Origin: Corynebacterium simulans
Lineage (GTDB): Bacteria > Actinomycetota > Actinomycetes > Mycobacteriales > Mycobacteriaceae
Assembly: GCF_001586215.1 (NCBI RefSeq)
Contig: NZ_CP014634.1
Span: 1,798,001-1,862,000 of the forward strand
Reading direction: 5' to 3'
Length of the DNA stretch: 64,000 bases
Part shown: in pieces, positions 16,693 through 24,154 of the stretch
Position numbering within the stretch: position 1 is the first letter of the stretch
Layout of the letters: every line of letters starts with the position of its first letter
Program-made: the position numbers and the translations under genes
The notes under the pieces: model-generated
Seen by the model: only the letters and a program-made list of their open reading frames with translations
What the model was told of the DNA's origin: nothing
The model's database searches: none

Positions 16693-18699
16693 CTACTCCA
16701 CTCGTCGCGTCCATGGAAGAGCTTCAAACTCTGCGCGGTCTCCGTTCACAAACCGCTCAAGGAGGGACAAGGCTTCGTCGATGTCCTCAAGGAGCATCTG
16801 GAAGCTTTCCTCCTCACCGTTGTTGTGGCCCCATTCGACGAGGTAGCGCGCTGCTCCTGTTTCTGAGGGTTCCACGCGGTCGACCTGGCAGTAATCGCCC
16901 GGAACTATTCGGTCAAAGGCCGCTACCCACGCTCCCACTTCGGGGAAGCCGTCCTGGCGAACTGCTTCGAGAAGGTCATCGTTGAAAAGATATGCGGCCG
17001 AGCCGAAGACCGTGGCATTGACCATGAAGCGCTCTTCCTCAGGGATATCTGAGGACGACTTCTGATCTTGCCAATTCACTTTGTCCACCAATTGCGCTGG
17101 GGAGTAGGTGAATTCAACCATCACACCCAGAGCAAGGGGCAGTGGGGTAGAAGGGATTTCGTGTAGTTTCCCGTCGGGGGTGACAAGGTCAAGCGAAACG
17201 TTGTCGCCCGTGTAGGTGGTTGCCAAGGTATAACGCTCCTGGAAGTCCACCTGACTCCCGGATCGAACCTCAAGCTTCCATCCTGTGAAGAAGCGAAGCC
17301 CAGCTTCGAGTACGGAGGAGGATGTAGCCACCTCCCAAGTGTTCACATACAACTTATCCGCGAGTAGCTTCAACTGGCAGCTCTCAGCCCCTGGAAGCGG
17401 CTTGCCCGACGGGTTATACAGCGCCAGGGAATCATCGACAACAAGCGAAATGCCATAGTCCTGTGCCAGATGAGTTAGTCTCTCGATCGTGACCGTCCTG
17501 ACGTCAGCAGGGATGAGCAGCCGAGTAAGTGCTTGGGCCTCTACCTGTTCCTCAGCGAGGAGGATTTCGCTTCCGAGCTTTGTGTTAATCCTCTCAATGT
17601 ATTTCTGCATCCGAGGGCTGGGCTCGCCATTATGGTCAGCGCGGATGCGGTGCATCATGCATACTGATGCTTCAGTCCACTGTTCCTCGCGCTCTGGTAG
17701 CTCCATTGCTGTGACCGTGGTGTACGGCGCGGGATCCGAAGATGAAGAGTCCGGGAAGACCGTGGAAATCATCTCGCCGTTGCCGTCTAAATAGTGCTCC
17801 GCCACTGCGATGACTTCGTCTGCAATATCGAAGGTCTGCACATTGTCGGTGCCGAGGTTATCGTAAACCTTTGCGGTCCACTGTCCCTGTGTATTGCGGC
17901 CGTAGGCCAGGGAAAATGTTGGCCATTTGTGCAGGTGGACCATCACGCCTTCGGGGAGCTCCTTCACCGCGTCCAGCCGGCGCCAGGGTGTTTCGTGGCG
18001 GAATGAAGGATCCAGGATAGGTTTTGATGCGCGCTGAGAAAGCGGCTCCCATGCGAATTCTTCGATCAACGGGTTGCGATCACTGAAGGAAAGCAGAATT
18101 TCTCGTGCTTCTTCGTAAGTATCGACAGTGAGTGTGCGGAATACCGGTTCAGTGGCCTCTGGAGGGAGGCTGGACCATATCAGTTCGAACTGGCCGCTTG
18201 CGCGCACGTGCATGGACATTTCGAGGCCGTAGCTTCGTTCTTCCGAGCCATAGTTGATTACCTGAATCCACGTCTGTTCGGACATCGGCAGGCGGAGTGC
18301 GTCTTCAAAGGCGCGATCAAGCATAGGTCTGCTGACCTGTCGCCACATAGTTCCCATGCAGTTCCTGATGGAGGAAAGGCCATTGCTGCTCGTGGGGATT
18401 CCAGTCGCATTAAAGAGGATGTCTGTGGTTCCAATGAAGACCACCAAGCCGTGGTAATACGCCAACAAAGCTAGCTTTTCTTGGAGCTCTAAATTGCTGG
18501 AATCCATCGTGACCGTGACGGCCGAATGCGCGGGCACGTCCTGTCCGAAGAGCTTGGAGAGTGCCGCCGATGCCTCTTCCATTTCTGGATCCGGCTTACG
18601 AAAGGAATCCAGCCCTTCCGTCTGTATTAACTCCAGAAAATAGTCATGGTCGGCAATTAATTCTTTCTTAAAGCGCACGATGTTGAGCTGCACGTCCAT
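16693..18699 (-). CDS. Large uncharacterised protein (668 aa)
   Basis: I do not recognise this family. It is an acidic, soluble 668-aa protein with no signal peptide, membrane helix or nucleotide-binding motif. Three stretches look like diverged repeats of one module, each an aromatic-rich strand followed by an acidic helix: FRTLTVDTYEEAREILLSFS (~residues 187-206), TFDIADEVIAVAEHYLDGNG (~290-310), and FQMLLEDIDEALSLLERFVN near the C-terminus. GAAGGA lies 9 bases before ATG 18699. GC appears somewhat lower than its neighbours. It lies in an accessory patch with rhodanese and hicB, suggesting horizontal transfer; function unknown. Confidence 0.75.
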   Translation of the reverse strand: MDVQLNIVRFKKELIADHDYFLELIQTEGLDSFRKPDPEMEEASAALSKLFGQDVPAHSAVTVTMDSSNLELQEKLALLAYYHGLVVFIGTTDILFNATGIPTSSNGLSSIRNCMGTMWRQVSRPMLDRAFEDALRLPMSEQTWIQVINYGSEERSYGLEMSMHVRASGQFELIWSSLPPEATEPVFRTLTVDTYEEAREILLSFSDRNPLIEEFAWEPLSQRASKPILDPSFRHETPWRRLDAVKELPEGVMVHLHKWPTFSLAYGRNTQGQWTAKVYDNLGTDNVQTFDIADEVIAVAEHYLDGNGEMISTVFPDSSSSDPAPYTTVTAMELPEREEQWTEASVCMMHRIRADHNGEPSPRMQKYIERINTKLGSEILLAEEQVEAQALTRLLIPADVRTVTIERLTHLAQDYGISLVVDDSLALYNPSGKPLPGAESCQLKLLADKLYVNTWEVATSSSVLEAGLRFFTGWKLEVRSGSQVDFQERYTLATTYTGDNVSLDLVTPDGKLHEIPSTPLPLALGVMVEFTYSPAQLVDKVNWQDQKSSSDIPEEERFMVNATVFGSAAYLFNDDLLEAVRQDGFPEVGAWVAAFDRIVPGDYCQVDRVEPSETGAARYLVEWGHNNGEEESFQMLLEDIDEALSLLERFVNGDRAEFEALPWTRRVE

Positions 18700-18831: not shown

Positions 18832-19488
18832 TTAGCGGTGCGCTGAAAGGTACTCCAAGATTGCCTTGACGCGGCGGTTGTCTTCGCTGGGATCTAAACG
18901 CAGCTTGGTGAAGATATTGGAGACGTGCTTGGCCACCGCGGCGGAAGAAAGGACGAGCTCGGCGGCGATGTCCTTGTTGGACTTGCCGCGGGACATGAGT
19001 TCGAGCACCTCGCGCTCGCGCGGGGTGAGCTCACCCAAGCCGCTGCGCCCGGAGCTCATTAAAGCCTGAGCCACGGTGGGGTCGATGACGGTGCCGCCCT
19101 GGGCCACCACGTCCAGGCTGGAGAGGAAGTCGCGCACTTCGGAGACGCGGTCTTTCAGAAGGTAGCCGGTGCCGGCATCGGGGGAGTCGAAGAGCTCCAC
19201 CGCGTATGCGGGGGCCACATATTGGGAGAGCACCATGACGGGCAGGCCCGGGTATGCGTTTCTTAAGTTCACGGCGGCTTTCAAGCCGTCGTCGCCCATG
19301 CCCGGCGGCATGCGCACGTCCGTGATGACGATGTCCGGAAGCTCATCGCGCAGCTTGTCCACCACCGCCTCAAGCGCCGGGGCGGAGTCCGCCTGGCCCA
19401 CAATTAAATGCCCGCGGCGCTCCAACAGGCCGGCGAGGCCCTCGCGCAGAATGGCGGAGTCATCCGCCACGACGATTCTCAAACTCAT
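18832..19488 (-). CDS. NarL/LuxR-type response regulator
   Basis: A 218-aa two-component regulator. The receiver domain shows the acidic pair Asp9-Asp10, phospho-acceptor Asp57 (DIVITDVRMP) and Lys112 (YLLKD). The C-terminal HTH reads LTPREREVLELMSRGKSNKD with recognition helix AAVAKHVSNIFTKL. The ATG overlaps the kinase stop by four bases (ATGA), so the two are co-translated. An in-frame start at 19536 would lie inside the kinase gene and is less likely. It probably controls the divergent ABC-protease operon at 20285, where a perfect 16-bp palindrome sits between the divergent genes. Confidence 0.9.
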   Translation of the reverse strand: MSLRIVVADDSAILREGLAGLLERRGHLIVGQADSAPALEAVVDKLRDELPDIVITDVRMPPGMGDDGLKAAVNLRNAYPGLPVMVLSQYVAPAYAVELFDSPDAGTGYLLKDRVSEVRDFLSSLDVVAQGGTVIDPTVAQALMSSGRSGLGELTPREREVLELMSRGKSNKDIAAELVLSSAAVAKHVSNIFTKLRLDPSEDNRRVKAILEYLSAHR

Positions 19489-20195
19489 TGGTGAACTCCT
19501 GACTGTCCGCGATCGAGAAGAAGGGGAATCGAGCACGTCAGCCTCGTCGGCCCGCCCGGGGGAGAGCTCAGCGTCATCTCTCCGCCGAAAGCGACGAGGC
19601 GCTCGGCCATCCCCGCTAAGCCGTGACCTTGTAAAACCTGTGCGCCACCCGGCCCCTCATCCACCACGGTGATTTTCAAGGAGGCATCCGCGGTCACTAA
19701 AACGGAGACCGGCGCGCCGGGCGCGTGCTTGGCAGCGTTGGTTAAAGCCTCCGTGCCGAAGAAGTAGCCGCAGGCCAACACGGAAGCGGATAGCTTGGGC
19801 AAAGGATGCGGGGCGAAGACGCTGACGTGGGGGCCGTGGGAAGAAGCAGCGTCGGCAAGCGCGGCCACCAAACCATGATCCTGCAGGACCTGGGGGTGGA
19901 TGCCGTGCACCGTGGCGCGCAAGGACTTGAGGCCGCGGTCCACGTCCTGCTTGGCCGCGGTGAGGAGCTCGGCGAGGTCTGCGGGGGCGTCGAGAAGAGC
20001 CTCCCCCAACTTCATGCTCGCGGCCACGAGGTATTGCTGCGCGCCATCGTGCAGGTCGCGCTCGATGCGAGCGCGCTCCACCTCATAGGCGTCCGCGATG
20101 GCGCGGCGCGAGGCCGTGAGCTGCGCAATCTGCTGCGCCTGCTGCTGCTCGTGCGTGGTGGAATGGGGCTTCTTACGGAACACGGTGCTAAGCAT
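19485..20195 (-). CDS. Soluble NarL-type sensor histidine kinase
   Basis: From ATG 20195 the protein is 236 aa. It has a short coiled N-terminus (HEQQQAQQIAQLTASRR), the HisKA_3 dimerisation box ERDLHDGAQQYL with phospho-His49, and an HATPase_c domain (TEALTNAAKH, VVDEGPGG, GHGLAGMAERL). No transmembrane or extracellular sensing domain is present, so it must receive its signal through another protein, plausibly the adjacent ABC transporter. The start is uncertain; an in-frame codon at 20306 would overlap the palindrome and the ABC gene start. It is the first gene of the kinase-regulator unit. Confidence 0.87.
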   Translation of the reverse strand: MLSTVFRKKPHSTTHEQQQAQQIAQLTASRRAIADAYEVERARIERDLHDGAQQYLVAASMKLGEALLDAPADLAELLTAAKQDVDRGLKSLRATVHGIHPQVLQDHGLVAALADAASSHGPHVSVFAPHPLPKLSASVLACGYFFGTEALTNAAKHAPGAPVSVLVTADASLKITVVDEGPGGAQVLQGHGLAGMAERLVAFGGEMTLSSPPGGPTRLTCSIPLLLDRGQSGVHQ

Positions 20196-20218
20196 ATCGG
20201 GCGACGGTCCCGTCAGGG

Positions 20219-20234
20219 GTAGTGCTGGCACTAC
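20219..20234. promoter_or_regulatory. Perfect 16-bp palindrome between divergent TCS and ABC operons
   Basis: GTAGTGCTGGCACTAC is identical to its own reverse complement. It lies 24 bases before the kinase ATG and about 50 bases before the ABC ATPase ATG, the expected place for the NarL-type regulator to bind. Confidence 0.6.
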
Positions 20235-20284
20235 CTTAAAGAGCAACGCTAGGGCTGTTCTTTCCGCGGGCCCGGCACGGTGGA

Positions 20285-20980
20285 ATGAGAGACATGGCAA
20301 AGACACTTTCCCTGACAGACATCACCAAGGATTTCGGCGGCGGCCCGGTGCTCGCTGGAATCTCCCTCGACATTGAACCGGGCGAGCTCGTGGCCGTCAT
20401 GGGGCCGTCCGGCTCCGGCAAATCCACGCTGCTGCACTGCATGTCCGGCGTGCTGACGCCTACGCACGGCAGCGTGCGCTACGGCGACGAGGAGCTCTCC
20501 GCGCTTGGCGACGGCCCCCGCTCCCGCACCCGCCTGCGCAACTTCGGCTTCGTCTTCCAAGACGGCCAGCTGCTGCCGGAGCTGAGCAACGTGGACAACG
20601 TGGCGCTGCCCGCCATGCTCAACGGAGTATCGCGTGGGGCTGCCCGCAAGCGCGCGATGGAGCTTCTTGGTCAGCTTGGCCTTGGCGGTTTGGCGGATCG
20701 TCGCCCGGCGCAGGTCTCCGGTGGCCAGGCGCAGCGCGTGACCATCGCGCGTGCACTGGTGGCAAATCCGGGCATCGTCTTCGCCGACGAGCCCACCGGT
20801 GCGCTGGACCAGTCCACCGGCCACGAGGTGATGCAGATGCTCACGACCATCGTGCGCCAGTCGGGTGCCAGCCTGGTCATGGTCACGCATGACCCGAAGG
20901 TGGCCGATTGGATGCAGCGCCGCGTGGAGATTCGCGATGGCATCATTCACGACGACCGCCGCCTTGGGGTGATTCGATGA
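20285..20980 (+). CDS. ABC transporter ATP-binding protein (MacB/BceA type)
   Basis: A 228-231-aa ATPase. Walker A GPSGSGKST, Q-loop FVFQDGQLLPE, signature VSGGQAQRVTIARAL, Walker B IVFADEPTGALD and the H-loop VTHD are all present, in the LolD/MacB/BceA subfamily that drives FtsX-like permeases. Two starts are possible: ATG 20285 or ATG 20294 (MAKTLSLTD); neither has an ideal ribosome binding site. The stop overlaps the permease ATG (ATGA). With the permease, the S41 protease and the divergent two-component system it forms a self-contained module resembling lantibiotic-resistance loci. Confidence 0.93.
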   Translation: MRDMAKTLSLTDITKDFGGGPVLAGISLDIEPGELVAVMGPSGSGKSTLLHCMSGVLTPTHGSVRYGDEELSALGDGPRSRTRLRNFGFVFQDGQLLPELSNVDNVALPAMLNGVSRGAARKRAMELLGQLGLGGLADRRPAQVSGGQAQRVTIARALVANPGIVFADEPTGALDQSTGHEVMQMLTTIVRQSGASLVMVTHDPKVADWMQRRVEIRDGIIHDDRRLGVIR

Positions 20981-22377
20981 ACACCGCGACCCTAGTTATG
21001 GACCTGCAGCGCGAATCTATTCGCGCGCGCTCAGGCACGGGAATCGTCTCGATGCTGGCGATTGTGAGCTTGACCATTGGCTCCGCCATCGCCTTCCTCG
21101 TTGCGGGTGGTACCTGGATGTTCTGGCAGCGCGCCCAGCACGTCGAGGATGCCGCCCCGGCACTCAAGGAGGCCTTCGGCAACGATATTACGGCCTGTTT
21201 TTATATCTGGTTCGCCCTAGCCCTTTTTGCCTGCGCGTTCATTCTTCCGGCGCTGTTTAACCTCACAGCCCAAGCAGCCGTCCTCGGTGCGTCCGGCAGG
21301 GAGCAGCGCCTGGCCACCCTGCGCCTGTTGGGGCTGAGCTCCCGGCAGGTGGAGCGCATGGCCATTGTGGAGACCGGCCTCCAGGCGGTGATCGGCATCG
21401 TGCTCGGTGGGCTGATCAGCCTGCTCGTCGCGCCGGTCTTCACCCAGCTGGATTTCCAGATGCGCCCCATCGCTCTGTCCGAGCTTCTCCTCCCGTGGTG
21501 GGGCTACCTCGCCGTGGCGGGTGTGCTTTTCCTGCTGGCCATCGGCGCCGCATTCGTCGGCATGCAGCGCGTGCGTGTGAGCCCGCTGGGCGTGGCCAAG
21601 CGTCAGATGCCCGCGGCTTACCGCTGGTGGCGCGCCATCGTCTTCCTCATCATCGTGGCGGCCGGTGGGGTTTTCCTCTTCGGCAAGGCGGGCCCGCCGA
21701 CCGCCATGGTCATCGTGGTCATGTTCGGCATGCTGATGAGCATCAACCTCATCGCTCCCTTCATCCTGCAGCTCGGCGCGCACATCTTGTCCCTCTTCCC
21801 AGGCACCGCGCACTTCGTGGCCTGCCAGCGCGTGGCGGGCAATGCGCGCCCCGCCTGGCGGCGGAGTGCTGCCATCGGCTTCTTCGGTTACTTGGCGGGA
21901 TTCCTCGTTGCCGCGCCCCTGGGCGCAGACGCTTTGGCCCTATCTCTGAAGGAAGACCCGGGGACGAACGTGGTGTTCAAGGACATCTCCACCGGTGTCT
22001 TGTTAACCCTCATCTTCGGCTTCACGCTGACCACCATGTCCATCATCCTGGGACAGGTCTCCGGCATTTTTGAGGACAAGGAGCTCATCCGCTCCCTGGA
22101 TCTCATGGGCGTGCCGCGCGGCTTCCAGTTCCGCTCCGGTGCCTGGACCGTCATGGGCCCGGTCGTGGGCTTGAGCTTCTTCGGCTTCCTCTTCGGCGGT
22201 GGCATCGCCTCGCTGATGTTCTTCTCCGGCCTCGATTCAAGCGACGTCGACGTGAGCGCTCGCCTGCTTATGGCCTTCGGCTTCCTGGCGGTGGGCTGGG
22301 TGGTCACGCTTCTTGCCATTGTCCTTGTTGAACCGTTGCGCGGCTACGTGCTGCGCACAGGAGGTCGAAAAGAATGA
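20977..22377 (+). CDS. FtsX-like ABC permease
   Basis: A 466-aa membrane protein with about ten hydrophobic segments, arranged as two FtsX-like halves (first half ending before AKRQMPAAYRWWR, ~residue 215). The conserved intracellular motif RLLGLSSRQVERMAIVE is repeated in diverged form as LIRSLDLMGVPRGFQF. Unlike BceB or MacB it has no large extracytoplasmic domain. It pairs with the ATPase just upstream (four-base overlap). Its stop overlaps the ATG of the protease gene. Transport substrate is unknown; antimicrobial peptide or lipid-linked cargo would fit the locus. Confidence 0.88.
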   Translation: MNTATLVMDLQRESIRARSGTGIVSMLAIVSLTIGSAIAFLVAGGTWMFWQRAQHVEDAAPALKEAFGNDITACFYIWFALALFACAFILPALFNLTAQAAVLGASGREQRLATLRLLGLSSRQVERMAIVETGLQAVIGIVLGGLISLLVAPVFTQLDFQMRPIALSELLLPWWGYLAVAGVLFLLAIGAAFVGMQRVRVSPLGVAKRQMPAAYRWWRAIVFLIIVAAGGVFLFGKAGPPTAMVIVVMFGMLMSINLIAPFILQLGAHILSLFPGTAHFVACQRVAGNARPAWRRSAAIGFFGYLAGFLVAAPLGADALALSLKEDPGTNVVFKDISTGVLLTLIFGFTLTTMSIILGQVSGIFEDKELIRSLDLMGVPRGFQFRSGAWTVMGPVVGLSFFGFLFGGGIASLMFFSGLDSSDVDVSARLLMAFGFLAVGWVVTLLAIVLVEPLRGYVLRTGGRKE

Positions 22378-23305
22378 AAACTGTACTGAAAATTTTGGCG
22401 GACTCTTAGTCGTTGCCTTTATCGCGGTGCTCGCCGCCGTGTACTTCCTCGGCCCCTCCTATGGCGGGGCGCTCCTGGGCAAGCCCTATATTCTTTTCAA
22501 CACCAGCGAAAAACGTATCAACACCGCGATGGTGGATACCGCAGCGTATACCGGAATCTATGGCGAGAGCGAAGAATTTCAGCGCGCCCGCGAGGCCTTC
22601 AAAGAGGACCCGACCAACGCGGAGCTCCTCGTTGCCGCCATCGATGCCGCCGGCGGCAAGCACTCCAAGGTCTTTAACACCGAGAAGGAAAAGGCCATCG
22701 ACAACGCCGAGCCCTCGGTTTCCTTCGAGGACGGCATCCTGCGCGCCACCGTCCCGTCTATCGGCCGCCACGATGATGGCCAGGCCTATGCCGATACCTT
22801 GGCTCAAGGCCTGACTGCCCACCCGGAGGCCTGTGCCGCCGTGGTGGATCTGCGTGGCAACGACGGCGGCGATATGGGCCCGATGTACGCGGGCTTAAGC
22901 CCCCTGCTGCCGGATGGCACCGCGCTCTCCTTCGTCAGCCGCATGGGCACATCTGACGTGGTCATCGACGGCAATTCCGTCACCGGCGGCGGCACGCCCA
23001 CCACCACGTCGGGCGGCAAACTTGAGGTTCCCGTCGCCGTGATTACCGACGACGAAACCGCCTCCTCCGCCGAAGCCGCCCTCCTGGCCTTCCGCGGGCT
23101 GGACAACGTGCGCACCTTCGGCGAGCCGACCGCCGGCTACGCCTCCGCGAACGTGGTTCTGGATTACCCGGACGGCCGCTCGCTCATGCTCACCACGGCC
23201 AAAGACAAGGCGCGCACCGGCGAGGAATTCGCCGAGGACCCCATCGCCCCCGATGCCCCGGAATCCGAGCTCGATTCTTGGCTCGCTTCCCGCTGTGGCT
23301 CCTAA
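22374..23305 (+). pseudogene. S41 protease, nisin-resistance-protein-like, frameshifted near the N-terminus
   Basis: AGGAGG precedes the ATG at 22374, which overlaps the permease stop, but the frame (MKTVLKILADS) stops after 11 codons. Adding one G at 22397-22398 restores MKTVLKILGGLLVVAFIAVL, a signal anchor, joined to a complete extracytoplasmic S41 domain ending at 23305. That domain has VDLRGNDGGDMGP and the catalytic motif DDETASSAEAALLAF; TASSAE is the active-site signature of the nisin-cleaving protease NSR. The protein would be about 310 aa, as in NSR. The defect could be real or a base-call error. A GTG or ATG start downstream would lose the membrane anchor. Confidence 0.75.
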
Positions 23306-23320
23306 GCACGTTGCGGCTTC

Positions 23321-24154
23321 CTAGCCGCAACGCTCGCCTTCCCACCGCCAGTAGTGGTGCCACTTCCACGGCGGAGGAACGAACTCGCCCCGCCGTTTGA
23401 TGACCGCGAGGACCTGGTGCACAGCGACGTCAAGGTGGTGCTCAATCGTGGCGGCGGTGAAGTGGAGGGGCAGGTAGCCGCGCTGAATGGCGTCGTTAAG
23501 CTTCTGGCGGTCGATTTCGAAGCGCTGCCGGTTCTCGCCTTTGTGATACGCATAGCCGTCCACCTCGATGGCAACCTTGTGTTCCTCTAGCACCAAGTCC
23601 CAGCGGTAGGGCCCAACCCGCACGTTGTTGCGGACTTTGACGTGGGGTTCAAGGCCCCGGGTGAGGTCGCGCTCCGGCTTGCTATCCGCCCCGACGATGG
23701 CCTTCTCCAACACCTCACGCGTGTGCTTGGGCAGGCGGCGAAAGTCCAGCTGCTCGGTCTCGATGCGCGAGCGCCCGTGTGGCCCAGCGAAGAAGGCCTC
23801 GATGAAGGCCACGCCATCCTCCTGCGCCATGGCCTCAATGCATTACAGCGGGCTGCACACGTTTACCCCGTTCATACTGCCCAGCGCCTTGGGCCGTGCC
23901 CGCCGGCTGCGGAAATACGTGCTTGATGCCATCGTTCCTGCACGCAGGAAGTGAAGCGGAAAAGTCAGTTCTTGGCCAAGATACTGCTGAGCGGCGGAAT
24001 AGCCGTCTAAAGCTGAGTCCGGCCAGCGCCGCGAGACGACTTCAGCGAGCTCGCGCGGCGTTGGCACCGCAGATAAATACAGACCGCGGCAAATCTTGAT
24101 TGCCTGCCCCTTAGCAGCGCGGCGAGTCCCCGCGCGTCCCTCGAAAATTTCCAT
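23321..24154 (-). pseudogene. AbiEi-type wHTH plus DUF559 endonuclease-like gene with in-frame stop
   Basis: From ATG 24154 the frame encodes an AbiEi-like N-terminal domain (KICRGLYLSAVPTPRELAEV) of 103 residues, ends at TAA 23843-23845, and continues in the same frame (CIEA, then MAQEDGVAFIEAFF) to 23321. The second part is a DUF559/Vsr-like nuclease domain (RWDLVLEEHKVAIEVDGYAYH, with ENRQRFEIDRQKLN). Actinobacterial relatives are one continuous protein of about 280 aa, so a nonsense mutation is the simplest reading. A separate 169-aa protein could still start at ATG 23830. Function in relatives is unknown beyond the nuclease-like fold. Confidence 0.7.

What the first reader, a model, noticed from the sequence alone, without database searches (positions are those of the whole stretch)
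18832..23305. NSR-like peptide-resistance module with an unusual signalling pair
Seen: divergent kinase-regulator and ABC ATPase-permease-S41 protease genes with four-base overlaps; the protease has the TASSAE motif. Known: streptococcal nisin-resistance loci (nsr, nsrFP, nsrRK) combine an S41 protease with that active-site motif, a BceAB-type transporter and a two-component system. Different here: the kinase is soluble and NarL-type, and the 10-TM permease lacks the large extracellular domain. It could be a distinct actinobacterial lantibiotic-defence or bacteriocin-immunity family.
Basis: partly seen in the sequence, partly recalled or inferred. Interest (0 to 1): 0.75.

Follow-up and report, generated by a model that had tools for sequence, protein, structure and literature searches.

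The report
Corynebacterial nisin-resistance operon with its operator
This is a lantibiotic-resistance gene set of a kind already described for Corynebacterium, here with a damaged peptidase start; comparison of relatives reveals an 18-base DNA switch that its regulator very probably binds and that also sits in front of some distant peptidase genes.

Summary
Window 18832-23305 carries a divergent NarL-type regulator/TM-less kinase pair and an ABC ATPase/10-TM permease/S41 peptidase set with ATGA overlaps. The peptidase matches nisin resistance protein NSR (4y68, E 2.4e-32; model TM 0.81). The "distinct family" is not new: PMC8003753 (2021) describes such operons (nsrRKFPX) with the same oddities and nisin MIC gains on expression. 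Here the frame opened by the peptidase's overlap ATG stops after 11 codons; a near-identical relative shares the frame displacement, and intact copies exist elsewhere. Strong kinase and permease hits fall in the same 86 of 242 genus genomes; the peptidase adjoins them in 20. New here: an 18-bp palindrome (20218-20235) before the ATPase in 83 of 85 modules (both misses explained). It also precedes the unlinked peptidase in 13 of 23 module-bearing genomes, 0 of 35 module-less ones. Half-site position 6 tracks one recognition-helix residue of the regulator (G/G-Gly 5/5, A/A-Ser 3/3, any T-Ala 75/76). It is very probably the regulator's operator, in trans too. Against: genome-wide, the reversed pattern also hits 48 genomes (65 for the real one), so position matters, not mere presence. 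New member of a known kind.

The parts
18832..19488 (-). NarL/LuxR-type response regulator (NsrR-like), recognition helix ...AAVAKHVSNIF
   Evidence: Pfam Response_reg 5.3e-14, GerE 6.1e-15; helix alignment
19485..20195 (-). Soluble HisKA_3-type histidine kinase, no membrane segment
   Evidence: Pfam HisKA_3 9.4e-13, HATPase_c 9e-09; hydropathy; DevS and DesK catalytic parts among the nearest PDB chains
20218..20235 (.). 18-bp palindrome GGTAGTGC TG GCACTACC, probable operator of the response regulator
20294..20980 (+). ABC ATPase (NsrF-like)
   Evidence: Pfam ABC_tran 2.5e-34; LolD/MacB-like in NCBIfam, below the curated cut-offs
20977..22377 (+). FtsX-type 10-TM permease without extracellular domain (NsrP-like)
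22374..22409 (+). Short frame opened by the overlap ATG; stops after 11 codons (start-proximal break of the peptidase gene)
   Evidence: sequence; junctions of relatives L002-L007 and their 309-310-residue proteins
22313..23305 (+). Open frame holding the NSR-like S41 peptidase (292 residues from GTG 22427)
   Evidence: Pfam Peptidase_S41 1.2e-18; PDB 4y68 E 2.4e-32; fold TM 0.81; omega 0.08-0.14 against six relatives

Best explanation
The locus is a corynebacterial Nsr-type lantibiotic-resistance module (nsrRKFPX in PMC8003753). Most likely working: a lantibiotic at the membrane is sensed by the BceB/YbbP-like transporter without extracellular domain, or with its help; the TM-less kinase, found only with that permease, takes up the signal and phosphorylates the NarL-type regulator. 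The regulator binds the 18-bp palindrome between the two transcription units and raises both the signalling pair and the transporter/peptidase operon. Where the NSR peptidase gene lies elsewhere, copies of the same palindrome often put it under the same regulator. The peptidase cuts the lantibiotic and the transporter removes it or shields against it. In this genome the peptidase has lost its normal start, so its contribution is uncertain. Shown here: gene content, homology, co-occurrence, operator conservation and operator/recognition-helix covariation. Shown in the paper for C. casei and C. ammoniagenes operons: nisin resistance. Inferred: kinase-transporter signalling, DNA binding, direction of regulation.
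For: NSR homology and fold. Published phenotype and the same architecture. Strong kinase and permease hits fall in the same 86 genomes, within 4 kb in all 84 where both are on one contig. Palindrome upstream of the ATPase in 83 of 85 assessed modules, against a mean of 0.05 and a maximum of 1 of 85 for 200 shuffled half-sites; 1.61 bits per position in the site against 0.16 and 0.31 in the flanks of 38 non-redundant copies. Unlinked peptidases: site in 13 of 23 genomes with the module (shuffled half-sites mean 0.035, maximum 1), 0 of 35 without (Fisher 3.6e-7, relatedness not corrected). At one conserved place the site sits between an upstream gene's stop and the peptidase in 4 module-bearing genomes and is absent in 7 module-less ones. 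Recognition-helix residue tracks operator position 6 in 83 of 84 modules; on an ATPase tree Gly arose at least twice, and Ser needs 4 changes, at least 2 on well-supported branches.
Against: No binding or expression experiment is available. The paper saw no nisin induction in the heterologous host, and its C. lactis operon gave no resistance. Ten of 23 module-bearing genomes with an unlinked peptidase lack a site before it. Genome-wide the strict pattern (up to 1 mismatch) hits 65 of 242 genomes, but its reversed control also hits 48, so mere presence proves little. G141 breaks the simplest helix rule (A/T site, Ser). Only eight modules carry the informative G/G or A/A sites, and the rule was noticed in the same data. 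The peptidase of this genome may not be made.
Confidence: 0.85

Rival explanations
1. Bacteriocin self-immunity locus rather than general resistance: the module would protect a producer from its own peptide.
For: Some species with such operons, C. casei for one, have predicted bacteriocin clusters (PMC8003753).
Against: No LanC homologue in the genome (where one control genome rang); the LanB search is uninformative because nothing rang anywhere. The window neighbours look like housekeeping genes (ppa, dacB, tilS by eye). The paper says none of its bacteriocin clusters matched its resistance hits.
Confidence: 0.05
2. The palindrome is a target of some other regulator, and its link with the module is indirect.
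For: No binding data; a few sites lie near other envelope genes; the reversed pattern also has many genome-wide hits.
Against: Fixed position before the module ATPase, presence before unlinked peptidases only in module-bearing genomes among those examined, and covariation with the module regulator's recognition helix. At up to 1 mismatch, 60 of 86 module-bearing but 5 of 156 other genomes have a match (with the set).
Confidence: 0.08
3. The S41 gene is an ordinary C-terminal processing protease (Ctp/Prc) with a housekeeping role.
For: S41 fold; weak hits to prc/Ctp models, far below their cut-offs.
Against: Best sequence and fold match is NSR by a wide margin (2.4e-32 against 5.1e-06 for the next; TM 0.81 against at most 0.59 among the other rows listed), with the NSR His and Ser positions conserved.
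Confidence: 0.04
4. In this lineage the peptidase is a decaying gene and only the signalling/transport core is still under selection.
For: Frame displacement shared with G222, which also lacks the DNA matching 22652-23057 including the His codon; G086 has the same deletion end points and an internal stop; remnants in G195 and G099.
Against: Core under purifying selection like intact copies (omega 0.08-0.14 against 0.06-0.16); a 292-residue frame from GTG 22427 could be made; identity to G222 drops from 99.5% to 90.4% across the deletion, so the window's core may have been re-acquired by recombination.
Confidence: 0.45

Closest known systems
Corynebacterium nsrRKFPX / nsrFPX / nsrPFKR operons (Goldbeck et al. 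2021, PMC8003753)
   Same: TM-less kinase with regulator, two-gene ABC transporter with 10 TM and no extracellular domain, NSR-like peptidase; same genus
   Different: Peptidase start broken in this genome; palindrome, operator and binding site are not mentioned in the paper's main text
Streptococcus agalactiae nsr-nsrFP-nsrRK
   Same: S41 peptidase with Ser236/His98 equivalents, an ABC transporter and a two-component system
   Different: NsrK has two membrane helices and NsrP a large extracellular domain (text of PMC8003753); neither is present here
BceAB-RS modules (B. subtilis)
   Different: No extracellular domain; soluble NarL-type kinase instead of the type with two membrane helices
E. 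coli YbbAP
   Different: No two-component partner or NSR peptidase known to me (recalled)

Membership tests
NSR (nisin resistance protein) S41 peptidases | S41 peptidase domain | tested here: met
   PF03572 E 1.2e-18
NSR (nisin resistance protein) S41 peptidases | Ser of TASSAE(M) and His of the GG(G)KH segment | tested here: met
   Aligned to 4y68; both columns invariant in 22 homologues; roles of Ser236/His98 from passages of PMC4698656. The M of TASSAEM is A here
NSR (nisin resistance protein) S41 peptidases | NSR fold | tested here: met
   TM 0.81 to 4y68, other rows listed at most 0.59 (50 of 442 matches listed); the tunnel was not measured
NSR (nisin resistance protein) S41 peptidases | N-terminal membrane helix | tested here: inconclusive
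   Hydrophobic stretch encoded in the main frame, but the overlap ATG is out of frame with it
NSR (nisin resistance protein) S41 peptidases | Cleaves nisin | not testable with these tools
   MIC gain by nsrX of C. casei and C. ammoniagenes in PMC8003753
BceAB-type transporter with its kinase | 10-TM FtsX-type permease with BceB fold | tested here: met
   (YbbP scores slightly higher)
BceAB-type transporter with its kinase | About 200-residue extracellular domain between TM7 and TM8 | tested here: not met
   15 residues between the seventh and eighth long helix of the model
BceAB-type transporter with its kinase | Kinase with two membrane helices | tested here: not met
   No segment above threshold in the 236- or 273-residue reading
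Corynebacterial nsrRKFPX operons (PMC8003753) | TCS + two-gene ABC transporter + NSR gene in one locus | tested here: met
   the NSR gene has a broken start
Corynebacterial nsrRKFPX operons (PMC8003753) | TM-less kinase and permease without extracellular domain | tested here: met
Corynebacterial nsrRKFPX operons (PMC8003753) | Confers nisin resistance | not testable with these tools
   Shown in the paper for C. casei and C. ammoniagenes operons, not for the C. lactis one; not known for this copy

The most novel reading that the evidence does not exclude
A BceB-like transporter without extracellular domain and a fully soluble NarL-type kinase form a distinct kind of transporter-coupled sensor. 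It drives a dispersed lantibiotic-defence regulon through an 18-bp operator that has co-evolved with the regulator, and the regulon captures NSR peptidases (and in some species perhaps a lantibiotic-protection-like ABC ATPase, LCP ligases or YeiB/DUF418 membrane proteins) that lie elsewhere in the chromosome.
Probability: 0.45. Interest if true: 0.65.

Novelty: new member of a known kind. Interest (0 to 1): 0.43.

Why it matters
PMC8003753 left open what the transporter and two-component system do and why no induction was seen. A predicted operator, a three-class natural specificity series (Ala/Gly/Ser with T/G/A) and in-trans peptidase targets make the wiring directly testable in harmless species. 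The strict pairing of the soluble kinase with this permease narrows where the signal may enter. It may also mean that linkage of the peptidase gene to the module is a poor guide to which Corynebacterium species can respond to nisin.

Tried and rejected
Own-genome regulon beyond the module: the strict pattern (up to 1 mismatch) gives only the module site. The relaxed pattern with up to 2 mismatches gives 21 sites against 61 for the reversed control, so no further target is claimed. The relaxed pattern with up to 1 mismatch in 31 chosen genomes is in most of them outnumbered by its reversed control too.

Genome-wide counting: the strict pattern matched 65 of 242 genomes and the reversed pattern 48 of 242 by my count of the table; its list of places was capped, so sites of G196 and G237, among others, were not examined.

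Extra sites in other genomes: near YeiB/DUF418 or HGSNAT-type membrane proteins (L164, L268, L272 by Pfam; L269 by likeness to L268), near LytR-CpsA-Psr proteins (L273 by Pfam; L274 and L279 by likeness to it by eye), about 240 bp before an ABC ATPase closest to TIGR03740 lantibiotic protection but below its cut-off (L270), and near another NarL-type kinase gene (L276, by eye). L271, L275, L277 and L278 lie inside coding frames. Given the control these are leads only.

Half-site symmetry alone is weak except at position 6 (28 of 38 symmetric, 20.4 expected).

LanB absence proves nothing, as no control rang. A permease sequence search against PDB found nothing. The literature search with the half-site letters returned 1,423 papers, of which 15 were listed, none on this subject. 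In the order-wide sample the permease gave strong hits in 3 of 397 genomes, all of this genus; the other 20 of its 23 hits lie outside the genus and are shorter or much weaker.

Rows dropped: the peptidase tree leaves out G041 (partial match) and 14 of the 20 linked copies; the ATPase tree leaves out G129, G223 and G014 (short); the helix table leaves out G078 and G223. First-look candidates were scored only in part in the whole-genome searches, so absences hold at that sensitivity.

My own errors: one search used wrong frames for kinase and permease (redone); one search used a wrong frame for the peptidase and its omega values are void (redone).
Full report

THE PEPTIDASE. Its main frame matches the solved S. 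agalactiae NSR 4y68 at E 2.4e-32; the next PDB sequence is at 5.1e-06. The as-is 292-residue reading models at pLDDT 90.7 and superposes on 4y68 with TM 0.81; no other of the 50 rows listed exceeds 0.59. The catalytic Ser and His known from SaNSR (passages of PMC4698656 seen) are aligned and invariant in 22 homologues. However, the frame opened by the overlap ATG stops at 22407-22409 and the core lies in another frame. Clusters P0001, P0002, P0088, P0098 and P0099 read the main frame straight through this junction, and P0003-P0010 begin at the same internal GTG. Genome G222 is 99.5% identical over 20900-22651 and has the same frame displacement; it also lacks the DNA matching 22652-23057, which includes the His codon, and after the gap its identity to the window is 90.4%. 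One of the two therefore has a recombined 3' part; the window's is 90-96% identical per block to G073, whose contig has the length of the C. aurimucosum record L002. G086 has the same deletion end points and an internal stop. The window's core shows ordinary purifying selection (omega 0.08-0.14 against six relatives; 0.06-0.16 among 15 pairs of these). Intact copies with the overlap start exist in relatives. Whether the peptidase is made here is open.

ALREADY PUBLISHED. PMC8003753 (outline, parts 1-4 of 7 of the text and the figure/table section read; term look-up; remaining parts and supplements not read) describes these operons in Corynebacterium. It found NSR-like peptidases in 32 of 114 species and 38 homologous transporters, almost all beside a two-component system, with the peptidase in the same locus in 10 genomes. 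It notes the missing extracellular domain and the kinase without membrane helices. The C. casei operon raised the nisin MIC of C. glutamicum from 1.25 to 5.00 ug/mL (2.50 without the peptidase gene), the C. ammoniagenes operon from 1.25 to 5.00 (1.25 without it), the C. lactis operon not at all. So the finding as worded is a member of a known kind.

CO-OCCURRENCE. Of 242 genomes of the genus (unnamed; Corynebacterium by the named matches), 83 hold the peptidase at E 1e-10 and 86 the permease at E 1e-20. The kinase gives hits in 110 at E 1e-20. The 86 of these better than 1e-60 are exactly the permease-bearing genomes, and both genes are within 4 kb in all 84 where they share a contig (G099 and G223 are split across contigs). 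Peptidase and module are both present in 44 genomes (about 29.5 expected; Fisher 6.5e-5, relatedness uncorrected): adjacent in 20, elsewhere in 23, and in G099 a remnant lies near the kinase. Three of the 20 adjacent copies (G086, G195, G222) are remnants or internally deleted. The transporter-kinase pair is therefore the fixed core and the peptidase an accessory.

AN OPERATOR. Between kinase and ATPase lies GGTAGTGC-TG-GCACTACC (20218-20235). In the window it occurs once; the only other match at up to 3 mismatches has 3. Of 86 module loci 85 could be read, and 83 have it with at most 3 of 16 mismatches within 300 bp upstream of the ATPase. The two misses are a contig end (G099) and a partial ATPase match (G129); both genomes have a site near the kinase. 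Two hundred shuffled half-sites give a mean of 0.05 and a maximum of 1 of 85. In 38 copies with flanks under 70% identical the site holds 1.61 bits per position against 0.16 upstream and 0.31 downstream (the site was used for anchoring, which favours it). Presence somewhere in a genome is not specific: at up to 1 mismatch the pattern hits 65 of 242 genomes and its reversed control 48. Of the 65, 60 carry the module (of 86) and 5 do not (of 156).

IN TRANS. Peptidase loci of 59 of the 83 genomes were examined for the site within 300 bp upstream: 13 of 23 module-bearing genomes with an unlinked peptidase, 0 of 35 genomes without the module, 0 of 1 linked. Not examined: 19 of the 20 linked, G099, and 4 module-less genomes (G042, G069, G093, G199). 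On a peptidase tree of 63 rows the with-site label needs 4 changes, at least 2 on well-supported branches. At one conserved place G033, G002, G100 and G236 have the site between an upstream gene's stop and the peptidase. Seven module-less genomes there (G135, G136, G160, G161, G210, G152, G173) do not; neither do G092, G096, G154 and G186, which have the module, nor G187, whose upstream part aligns poorly.

CO-EVOLUTION. In 20 regulators plus the window's, the residue X of VXKH in the recognition helix matched operator half-site position 6. Extended to the 84 modules with both readable: G/G sites have Gly (5 of 5), A/A sites Ser (3 of 3), sites with at least one T have Ala in 75 of 76 (G141 is Ser). 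Of the 63 modules added after the rule was seen 62 fit, but all have a T half-site, so the informative cases are the eight seen first. On an ATPase tree of 83 rows Gly arose at least twice; Ser needs 4 changes, at least 2 on well-supported branches. By recall, X corresponds to NarL Lys188, a base-contacting residue. This is the best evidence that the module's regulator binds the palindrome. I found no report of such an operator: searches, and term look-ups in PMC8003753, PMC9927463 and PMC8760817, none of which covers most subscription papers, preprints or supplements.

HOW IT WORKS. Most likely transporter-coupled sensing of a lantibiotic, relay through the soluble kinase, and activation from the palindrome of transporter, signalling pair and, linked or not, the NSR peptidase. 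DNA binding, direction of regulation and the signal itself are inferred. Self-immunity is unlikely: no LanC homologue was found.

VERDICT. A real and correctly described module of a published kind, with a damaged peptidase in this lineage. The comparative work adds a probable operator, peptidase control in trans and a natural specificity series, which raises an otherwise low interest score to moderate.

Noticed in passing
22374-22409 and 22313-23305: Start-proximal frame displacement of the peptidase, shared with G222, in which a further 406 bp of the core are missing; identity between the two falls from 99.5% to 90.4% across that gap, so the gene is a mosaic in one of them.
   Followed up: partly
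L270 1548 (G166): Palindrome with one mismatch about 240 bp upstream of an ABC ATPase whose best model is TIGR03740 (lantibiotic protection), below cut-off.
   Followed up: partly
L273 1470, L274 1435, L279 1483 (G090, G194, G091): Palindrome with one mismatch about 56-63 bp upstream of LytR-CpsA-Psr family genes in three genomes (L273 by Pfam, the other two by likeness to it).
   Followed up: partly
L164 1501, L272 1506, L268 1493, L269 1485: Palindrome (0-1 mismatch) upstream of YeiB/DUF418 or HGSNAT-type membrane proteins in G091, G090, G061 and G062 (L269 by likeness to L268).
   Followed up: partly
G025, G055, G061, G062, G187, G190, G196: Second S41 peptidase copy close beside the first in seven genomes.
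   Followed up: no
23321-23830 (-): Gene next to the module for a 169-aa protein that by eye resembles DUF559/Vsr-like nuclease domains; no family search was run on it.
   Followed up: no
16693-18699 (-): 668-aa protein beside the regulator with a counterpart upstream of the module in L002 and L005 but not in the other module loci (some are cut short there); identity not determined.
   Followed up: no
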